Source: Candidatus Promineifilum breve (GTDB taxonomy: Bacteria; Chloroflexota; Anaerolineae; Promineifilales; Promineifilaceae). From it: 64,000 bases of DNA. A model generated the notes under the pieces. It was not told the origin of the DNA. It ran no database searches and saw nothing but the letters and a program-made list of their open reading frames with translations. The stretch covers positions 2,148,726 to 2,212,725 of the forward strand of contig NZ_LN890655.1 of NCBI RefSeq assembly GCF_900066015.1, given 5' to 3'. The position numbers and the translations under genes are program-made. Positions within the stretch are counted from its first letter, which is position 1; each line of letters starts with the position of its first letter. Below are positions 34,703 to 36,146 of the stretch, piece by piece.

Positions 34703-35413
34703 ATGGCCCACCTCCAAGGACAAGAACGCGCCGACTACGTGCAGGACATGTTCGCCCGCATCGCCGGCCGCTATGACACCATGAACCGGCTGATGACCTT
34801 CGGCCAGGACGTGCGCTGGCGGCGCGCCGTCATCCGGAAGGCCAATCTGCCGGCCGGCGGCCGGCTGCTCGACATCGCCACCGGCACGGGCGACATCGCC
34901 GACGAGGGGCGGCGGCAAGTGCCCGGCCTCAGCGCCATCGGCGGCGACTTCACCATCGAGATGATGCAAGCCGGCAAGCGCCTGCCCGGCCGGGAGTTCA
35001 TTCGCTGGACGGCGGCCGACACGCTGCGCTTGCCCTTCGCCGACGCCACCTTCGACGCCGTGACCTCCGGCTTCCTGATGCGCAATGTCATCGACGTGGC
35101 GGGCGCGCTGCGCGAGCAGGCGCGCGTGACCAGGCCGGGCGGCCGGGTGGTCATCCTCGAATCCAGCCCGCCCAAGGACAACCTGCTCAAGCCGTTCATC
35201 AAGATTCACCTGAACCATGTGATCCCCACCCTCGGCCGCCTCGTGGCCGGGGAGAGCGACGCCTACCGCTATCTGCCCGACAGCACCCAGGCCTTCCAGG
35301 GGCCGGAGCAACTGGCCGAGGCCATGCGCGCCGCCGGTCTGGCGAACGTGAGCTATCAGCTATTCATGTTCGGCACGATTGGCATTCATGTGGGGACGAA
35401 GAGGAAGAATTAG
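34703..35413 (+). CDS. menG: UbiE/MenG methyltransferase (demethylmenaquinone methyltransferase)
   Basis: 236 aa, SAM-dependent. It carries out the last step of menaquinone synthesis (MenG), as expected for a menaquinone user, although UbiE activity cannot be excluded. The SAM loop is LLDIATGTGDIAD near residue 55, and the family signature YDTMNRLMTFGQDVRWRR is intact. LKPFIKIHLNHVIPTLGRLVAGESDAYRYLPDSTQ is characteristic of UbiE/COQ5. No strong Shine-Dalgarno is visible. Its quinone product would be reduced by the NDH-2 encoded at 20281. Confidence 0.9.
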   Translation: MAHLQGQERADYVQDMFARIAGRYDTMNRLMTFGQDVRWRRAVIRKANLPAGGRLLDIATGTGDIADEGRRQVPGLSAIGGDFTIEMMQAGKRLPGREFIRWTAADTLRLPFADATFDAVTSGFLMRNVIDVAGALREQARVTRPGGRVVILESSPPKDNLLKPFIKIHLNHVIPTLGRLVAGESDAYRYLPDSTQAFQGPEQLAEAMRAAGLANVSYQLFMFGTIGIHVGTKRKN

Positions 35414-35447: not shown

Positions 35448-36146
35448 TTGCTAAAAACTGTTGCTATTATTGGCTTGTTACTGGTGCTGGTTGCCTGTGC
35501 CCCGGCCCCGACCGCCACGCCCGCGCCGACAACCGTCGGCGCCACTGTAACCCCCGTCACCTCGCCAACCCCCGCGCCGGACGGGGATTCGCCGGCCGTG
35601 GGCGATGACGGCATCGTCTATGGCCGCACCGACGACGGCGCGTTCTTCCAGGGCGCGGCCGACGCCCCGGTGACGCTGATCGACTACTCCGACTTTCTGT
35701 GACCGACCTGTCGCGCCCACGTGCTGGGCGCCGAGCAGGACATCATCGCCAACCACGTCGCGACTGGCGAGGTGCGTCTGATTTACTGGCCCATGCTCGA
35801 CCTGGGGCCGAACAGCGAGAACGCCGCCGTGGCCGCCTTCTGCGCCGGCGAGCAGGACGCCGCCCACTTCTGGGCCTACCACCACACCCTCTTCGAGAAT
35901 CAGCGCAGTGTCTACCTGGCGCGGCGCGATTTCTTCGTGGAGACGGCCGCCGCGTTGGGGCTGGACGGCGCGGCGTTCGAGGCCTGTTACGACGGCGAAA
36001 CCACGCGGGCGCTGGTCATTGAACTGGACGAGGCGCGGCGGGCGATCGGGATTCGCCAGCGGCCGACGTTCGACATCAACGGCCACATCCTCCTCGGCGC
36101 GCAACCGTATGAGACCTTCGCCGAGGCCATCGCCGCTTCAAGATAA
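35448..36146 (+). CDS. DsbA-like thioredoxin-fold lipoprotein with in-frame UGA (candidate selenoprotein)
   Basis: Read through the TGA at 35700-35702 this is a 232-aa protein. It has a lipobox signal (LVLVACAP), a Thr/Pro-rich tether, then a DsbA-type thioredoxin domain whose strand VTLIDYSDFL runs into U85-P-T-C88. In relatives the motif is FxCPxC, so the TGA replaces the first redox Cys. The frame stays open for 147 codons after it, ending FDINGHILLGAQPYETFAEAI, a normal DsbA end. A hairpin at 35713-35731 suits a SECIS. The start is put at TTG 35448; GGAAGGGA lies about 12 nt upstream. The alternative is a pseudogene with a single nonsense change. Confidence 0.75.
35703..35739 (+). promoter_or_regulatory. 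Candidate bacterial SECIS element
   Basis: Ten nt after the UGA, GCGCCCA (35713-35719) and TGGGCGC (35725-35731) form a perfect 7-bp stem. The apical loop CGUGC begins 17 nt from the UGA, and its second base is G. CCTG (35707-35710) and CAGG (35736-35739) add a lower helix. As I recall the bacterial consensus, a G in the first two loop bases and a loop 16-37 nt from the UGA are required, and both hold. Confidence 0.7.

What the first reader, a model, noticed from the sequence alone, without database searches (positions are those of the whole stretch)
35448..36146. DsbA-like lipoprotein with UGA at the redox Cys: candidate UxxC selenoprotein
Seen: the single in-frame stop, TGA at 35700-35702, replaces the first Cys of FxCPxC (here DFL-U-PTC), and the frame stays open and homologous for another 147 codons. 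Ten nt later a perfect 7-bp stem (35713-35719/35725-35731) carries a CGUGC loop, and a lower CCTG/CAGG helix adds to it. Known: bacterial SECIS elements need a G in the first two loop bases and a loop at 16-37 nt from the UGA, and DsbA-like selenoproteins with UxxC have been reported. Inference: Sec85 replaces Cys in a lipid-anchored thiol-disulfide oxidoreductase. An ordinary annotator would call two fragments or a pseudogene.
Basis: partly seen in the sequence, partly recalled or inferred. Interest (0 to 1): 0.92.

Follow-up and report, generated by a model that had tools for sequence, protein, structure and literature searches.

The report
Selenocysteine lipoprotein resembling disulfide enzyme DsbA
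A gene that looks broken by a stop codon is almost certainly intact: the stop codon is read as the rare amino acid selenocysteine at the active site of a membrane-anchored disulfide enzyme, and NCBI already lists the family.

Summary
The frame 35448-36146 has one in-frame stop, TGA at 35700-35702, at the first Cys position of the DsbA active site (DFL-U-PTC). It is followed by 147 open codons and a hairpin that fits the published bacterial SECIS model. In the same taxonomic family 27 orthologues, aligned in full, all carry TGA in the same column. The hairpin stem covaries across 37 Sec-form sequences, whereas Cys-form relatives have mostly lost stem or loop. The genome encodes SelA, SelB, SelD and tRNA-Sec(UCA); SelD and a formate dehydrogenase alpha homologue also carry in-frame TGA. 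The protein is not new in kind. It scores 288.9 bits (cut-off 190) against NCBIfam NF041057, "Rcas_1661 family thioredoxin-like (seleno)lipoprotein". A 2026 review lists that model among predicted UxxC selenoproteins, as "DsbG-like protein". The likely function is lipid-anchored, extracytoplasmic thiol-disulfide exchange by Sec85-Cys88, possibly re-oxidised by the VKOR homologue found elsewhere in the genome; function and partner are inferred. One correction: the lower CCTG/CAGG helix is not conserved, so only the 7-bp upper stem and its loop count. Direct proof of Sec insertion (mass spectrometry or 75Se) is lacking.

The parts
35448..36146 (+). UxxC DsbA-like selenolipoprotein gene (232 aa read through, TTG start, TAA stop)
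   Evidence: Open with TGA read as Sec; Thioredoxin_4 and DSBA in Pfam; NCBIfam NF041057, 288.9 bits, cut-off 190
35448..35498 (+). Signal peptide ending in lipobox LVAC (lipid-modified Cys17)
   Evidence: Read from the translation; no signal-peptide program was run; NCBIfam calls the family a lipoprotein
35700..35702 (+). Sec-encoding UGA, residue 85, first position of the UxxC redox motif U-P-T-C88
   Evidence: TGA in 27 of 27 aligned family orthologues at the same column; Cys in other phylum members at the same motif position
35713..35731 (+). Bacterial SECIS: 7-bp stem 35713-35719/35725-35731, loop CGUGC 35720-35724, 17 nt between UGA and loop
   Evidence: Fold; 91% of cells paired, 65 cells with changes on both sides against 20 in shuffles; meets the four constraints quoted in PMC13188914
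35709..35711 (+). Resolving Cys88 codon (TGT) of the UxxC motif
   Evidence: Invariant in 27 orthologues
35841..35843 (+). Cys132, invariant; possible second cysteine pair with Cys180
   Evidence: Invariant column; pairing is inferred, not measured
35985..35987 (+). Cys180, invariant; possible partner of Cys132
   Evidence: Invariant column; pairing is inferred
36063..36065 (+). Pro206, invariant, at the place of the cis-Pro that faces the active site in thioredoxin folds
   Evidence: Invariant column; role from general knowledge of the fold
34703..35413 (+). UbiE/MenG-type methyltransferase gene just upstream; neighbour kept in part of the family
   Evidence: Pfam Ubie_methyltran 6.3e-52; relative found within the fetched flanks of 8 of 19 relatives examined

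Best explanation
The gene encodes a lipid-anchored DsbA-like selenoprotein of the NCBIfam NF041057 family. On its mRNA, UGA at codon 85 is decoded as selenocysteine by SelB with Sec-tRNA(UCA), directed by the hairpin 10 nt downstream. After export and lipidation the thioredoxin-fold domain sits outside the cytoplasmic membrane, where Sec85 and Cys88 exchange a selenenylsulfide/dithiol with substrate proteins as a disulfide oxidase or isomerase. It may be re-oxidised by the VKOR homologue in the genome. Sec coding is strongly supported by comparative evidence; location, reaction direction and partner are inferred.
For: TGA at one column in 27 of 27 orthologues with the frame continuing. Purifying selection continues after the TGA: dN 0.16, dS 0.78 against the closest relative. 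Stem covariation in 37 Sec forms: 91% cells paired, covariation score 0.646 against 0.246 in shuffles and at most 0.131 in slid registers. Among 12 Cys-form relatives the aligned stem has 2-5 of 7 pairs (mean 3.8; Sec forms 6.4) and most lack the CGUG loop. Own genome: SelA 8.2e-136, tRNA-Sec UCA, SelB 1.9e-91, SelD 1.5e-111 with U in CAGUASK, Fdh-alpha homologue with in-frame TGA. Cys-only genomes lack a SelB over the cut-off more often than TGA genomes: 7 of 12 against 2 of 16, Fisher p 0.017, genomes not independent. Model pLDDT 90.6; best Foldseek matches are DsbA/BdbD. VKOR homologue present.
Against: No mass spectrometry, 75Se or expression data. Part of the stem pairing follows from the conserved peptide (null mean 4.75 of 7 pairs against 6.38 observed). 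One TGA-bearing genome (G435, 92% complete) shows no SelB over the cut-off and another (G296) only a fragment, which could be assembly gaps. Partner and direction of catalysis are untested; VKOR lies far away in the genome.
Confidence: 0.96

Rival explanations
1. It is a pseudogene or two separate gene fragments split by a real stop codon.
For: By table 11 the frame is cut at 35702, and GTG 35721 could start a 141-aa ORF.
Against: The same single TGA at the same site in 27 genomes with the rest of the frame intact and under purifying selection; a pseudogene would gather other stops and frameshifts.
Confidence: 0.01
2. UGA is read through by a near-cognate tRNA (for example Trp) or by a general recoding of UGA, not as Sec.
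For: Read-through alone would also keep the frame open.
Against: The TGA sits at the catalytic Cys position, where homologues have TGC or TGT; a covarying SECIS-type hairpin follows; complete Sec machinery and other Sec genes are present. Some relatives use TGA as the ordinary end of the same gene.
Confidence: 0.02
3. It is a Sec protein but works as a reductase, isomerase or peroxidase-like enzyme instead of a disulfide oxidase (a rival on function only, compatible with Sec coding).
For: The 2026 review files NF041057 as 'DsbG-like', an isomerase name; Sec often raises nucleophilicity in reductive enzymes (general knowledge).
Against: Nearest solved relatives by profile and fold are BdbD and DsbA/TsdA, thiol-disulfide oxidoreductases. 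No DsbD/CcdA-type partner was searched for, so this stays open.
Confidence: 0.35

Closest known systems
NCBIfam NF041057, Rcas_1661 family thioredoxin-like (seleno)lipoprotein
   Same: Over the curated cut-off (288.9 against 190 bits); the model name itself says (seleno)lipoprotein; all 27 orthologues match it
   Different: Nothing of substance; the window gene is one more Sec-form member
DsbA-like and DsbG-like UxxC selenoproteins (Sargasso Sea study PMC1088965; PMC1794560)
   Same: DsbA-like protein, Sec at the first position of UxxC, SECIS just downstream
   Different: Those were reported from marine metagenomes and from Deltaproteobacteria, Clostridia and Actinobacteria; direct sequence comparison with them was not made
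Bacillus subtilis BdbD (PDB 3eu3) and Corynebacterium diphtheriae DsbA/TsdA (4pwo, 7unn)
   Same: Same fold and closest solved relatives by profile (E 1.1e-22 for BdbD) and by Foldseek
   Different: They carry Cys, not Sec, at the active site
Cys-form members of NF041057 in the same phylum (for example L047, L049, L059)
   Same: Same family and active-site position
   Different: TGC/TGT in place of TGA, stem and loop mostly lost

Membership tests
NCBIfam NF041057 (seleno)lipoprotein | Score over the curated cut-off of 190 bits | tested here: met
   288.9 bits, E 3.2e-86
NCBIfam NF041057 (seleno)lipoprotein | Lipoprotein signal with lipobox Cys | tested here: inconclusive
   LVAC17 read by eye in the translation; no signal-peptide predictor was available
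Bacterial selenoprotein | In-frame TGA aligned with a redox Cys of homologues | tested here: met
Bacterial selenoprotein | bSECIS: loop 3-9 nt, upper stem 4-16 bp, G in the first two loop bases, 16-37 nt from UGA to loop, MFE at or below -7.5 kcal/mol | tested here: met
   Loop 5 nt (CGUGC), stem 7 bp, spacer 17 nt, -20.5 kcal/mol for 46 nt; criteria from PMC13188914; bSECISearch itself was not run
Bacterial selenoprotein | selA, selB, selC and selD in the genome | tested here: met
Bacterial selenoprotein | Selenium physically in the protein | not testable with these tools
   Needs mass spectrometry or 75Se labelling
DsbA-like thiol-disulfide oxidoreductase | DsbA fold with (C/U)xxC and a conserved Pro at the cis-Pro place | tested here: met
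   Pfam hits, model and Foldseek, invariant U/C85, C88, P206; cis geometry not measured
DsbA-like thiol-disulfide oxidoreductase | Oxidase or isomerase activity | not testable with these tools
   Needs an enzyme assay

The most novel reading that the evidence does not exclude
The Sec form is a specialised electron-exchange partner tied to quinone metabolism: in part of its home family the gene lies near a UbiE/MenG-type methyltransferase gene, and it could pass electrons through VKOR to menaquinone, with Sec giving a kinetic advantage that the Cys paralogues lack.
Probability: 0.06. Interest if true: 0.5.

Novelty: new member of a known kind. Interest (0 to 1): 0.3.

Why it matters
Ordinary gene calling would record two fragments or a pseudogene here, losing a full-length redox enzyme. 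The family offers a natural comparison: Sec and Cys forms, sometimes in one genome (G169, G185), and one Cys form that still carries the 5-bp core stem and CGUGC loop (L066). That makes the question of why Sec is gained or lost in thiol enzymes open to direct testing, but the family itself is already catalogued.

Tried and rejected
Pseudogene and sequencing error: rejected by 27 of 27 conserved TGA. Lower CCTG/CAGG helix as part of the SECIS: rejected, 50% of cells paired. Single-sequence synonymous-recoding null for the hairpin: weak (17% for this sequence), so only the comparative signal was used. The scan of genome contigs with the single protein gave one distant relative only. The paper search for Rcas_1661 found nothing.

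Full report
Observation. The frame 35448-36146 reads as a 232-aa protein with one in-frame TGA at 35700-35702. Pfam Thioredoxin_4 covers residues 65-228, on both sides of the TGA. Near its N-terminus are a hydrophobic stretch and LVAC17, which reads as a lipobox. The hairpin is as described: 10 nt after the TGA, a 7-bp stem and loop CGUGC, with 17 nt between UGA and loop, -20.5 kcal/mol, z -2.36. It meets the four bacterial SECIS constraints given in PMC13188914.

Conservation of the TGA. A search of 52 genomes of the same taxonomic family found orthologues at 38-66% identity with exactly one in-frame stop, always TGA. I aligned 27 of them, the window gene included: all 27 have TGA in the same alignment column, in the motif SDFLUxxC or a close variant. 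Purifying selection continues beyond the TGA: against the closest relative dN is 0.16 and dS 0.78 over 144 codons. These genomes are separate species, so a sequencing error or a pseudogene does not explain it.

Conservation of the hairpin. On 37 Sec-form sequences (27 from the family, 10 from elsewhere in the phylum; alignment) the stem pairs in 91.1% of cells, 6 of 7 pairs show changes on both sides, 65 cells carry such changes (shuffles 20.2), and the covariation score is 0.646 (shuffles 0.246; slid registers at most 0.131). The peptide sequence alone would favour some pairing: synonymous recoding gives a mean of 4.75 pairs against 6.38 observed, and for the window sequence alone 17% of recodings give all 7 pairs. 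The lower CCTG/CAGG helix is not conserved, 50.3% of cells. In 12 Cys-form relatives the aligned stem has 2-5 of 7 pairs and most loops lack CGUG. One Cys form, L066, keeps the 5 pairs and the CGUGC loop of its Sec-form sisters, which looks like a recent Sec-to-Cys change.

Machinery. The window's own genome (99.96% complete) has SelA, tRNA-Sec with anticodon UCA, SelB and SelD, which itself reads CAGUASK with TGA at U. A formate dehydrogenase alpha homologue also has one in-frame TGA. Across 28 genomes with a member over the family cut-off (the window's own included), 14 of 16 TGA genomes but 5 of 12 Cys-only genomes have a SelB over its cut-off (Fisher p 0.017; my grouping, genomes not independent). 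The two TGA exceptions are G435 (none over the cut-off) and G296 (a fragment only).

What it is. NCBIfam names the protein: NF041057, Rcas_1661 family thioredoxin-like (seleno)lipoprotein, 288.9 bits against a cut-off of 190, and all 27 orthologues match this model. The 2026 review of prokaryotic selenoproteins lists NF041057 as a predicted UxxC selenoprotein under the name DsbG-like. DsbA-like UxxC selenoproteins have been reported since 2005. The AlphaFold model is confident (pLDDT 90.6, pTM 0.79) and its best solved matches are Corynebacterium DsbA/TsdA and Bacillus BdbD (by profile). C132 and C180 are also invariant and may form a second disulfide; this was not measured.

How it probably works (inferred). 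A lipid-anchored, extracytoplasmic thiol-disulfide oxidoreductase using Sec85-Cys88. A VKOR homologue exists in the genome and could re-oxidise it. A UbiE-type methyltransferase gene lies just upstream, and a relative of it is found within the fetched flanks of 8 of 19 relatives. Oxidase, isomerase and reductase roles are not separated by this evidence.

Verdict. The kind is known, so interest is modest. What remains open is direct proof of Sec and the physiological role.

Noticed in passing
L097 (minus strand, 538 of the reverse complement), L098:587, L099:634: A second UxxC DsbA-like group (motif SDFQUPFC, with a hydrophobic N-terminal stretch) in G024, G030 and G027. L098 scores 136 bits against NF041057, below its cut-off of 190. 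L098 and L099 carry the inverted repeat CTGACGC-GGG-GCGTCAG after the TGA; the minimum-energy fold of L098 forms it. It may be an unnamed selenoprotein group.
   Followed up: partly
L068 and L070 (G302:C13, G344:C300): Two members of the family in tandem, each with its own TGA and hairpin.
   Followed up: no
L066:1771: A Cys form (TGC) in a genome with SelB that keeps the 5-bp core stem and CGUGC loop of its Sec-form sisters, possibly a recent Sec-to-Cys change.
   Followed up: partly
G000:C1:3511757-3513667 (own genome, outside the window): A 665-aa open frame with three tandem matches to the DsbA-like domain, without in-frame stops; similar frames of about 650-750 aa occur in many family members.
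   Followed up: no
L103 (G000:C1:509062-511089): A formate dehydrogenase alpha homologue over the TIGR01591 cut-off with one in-frame TGA (ARLUHSSS), beside a second copy elsewhere in the genome without a stop.
   Followed up: no
L069 (G435): A TGA-bearing member in a genome (92% complete) where no SelB over the cut-off was found; probably an assembly gap.
   Followed up: no
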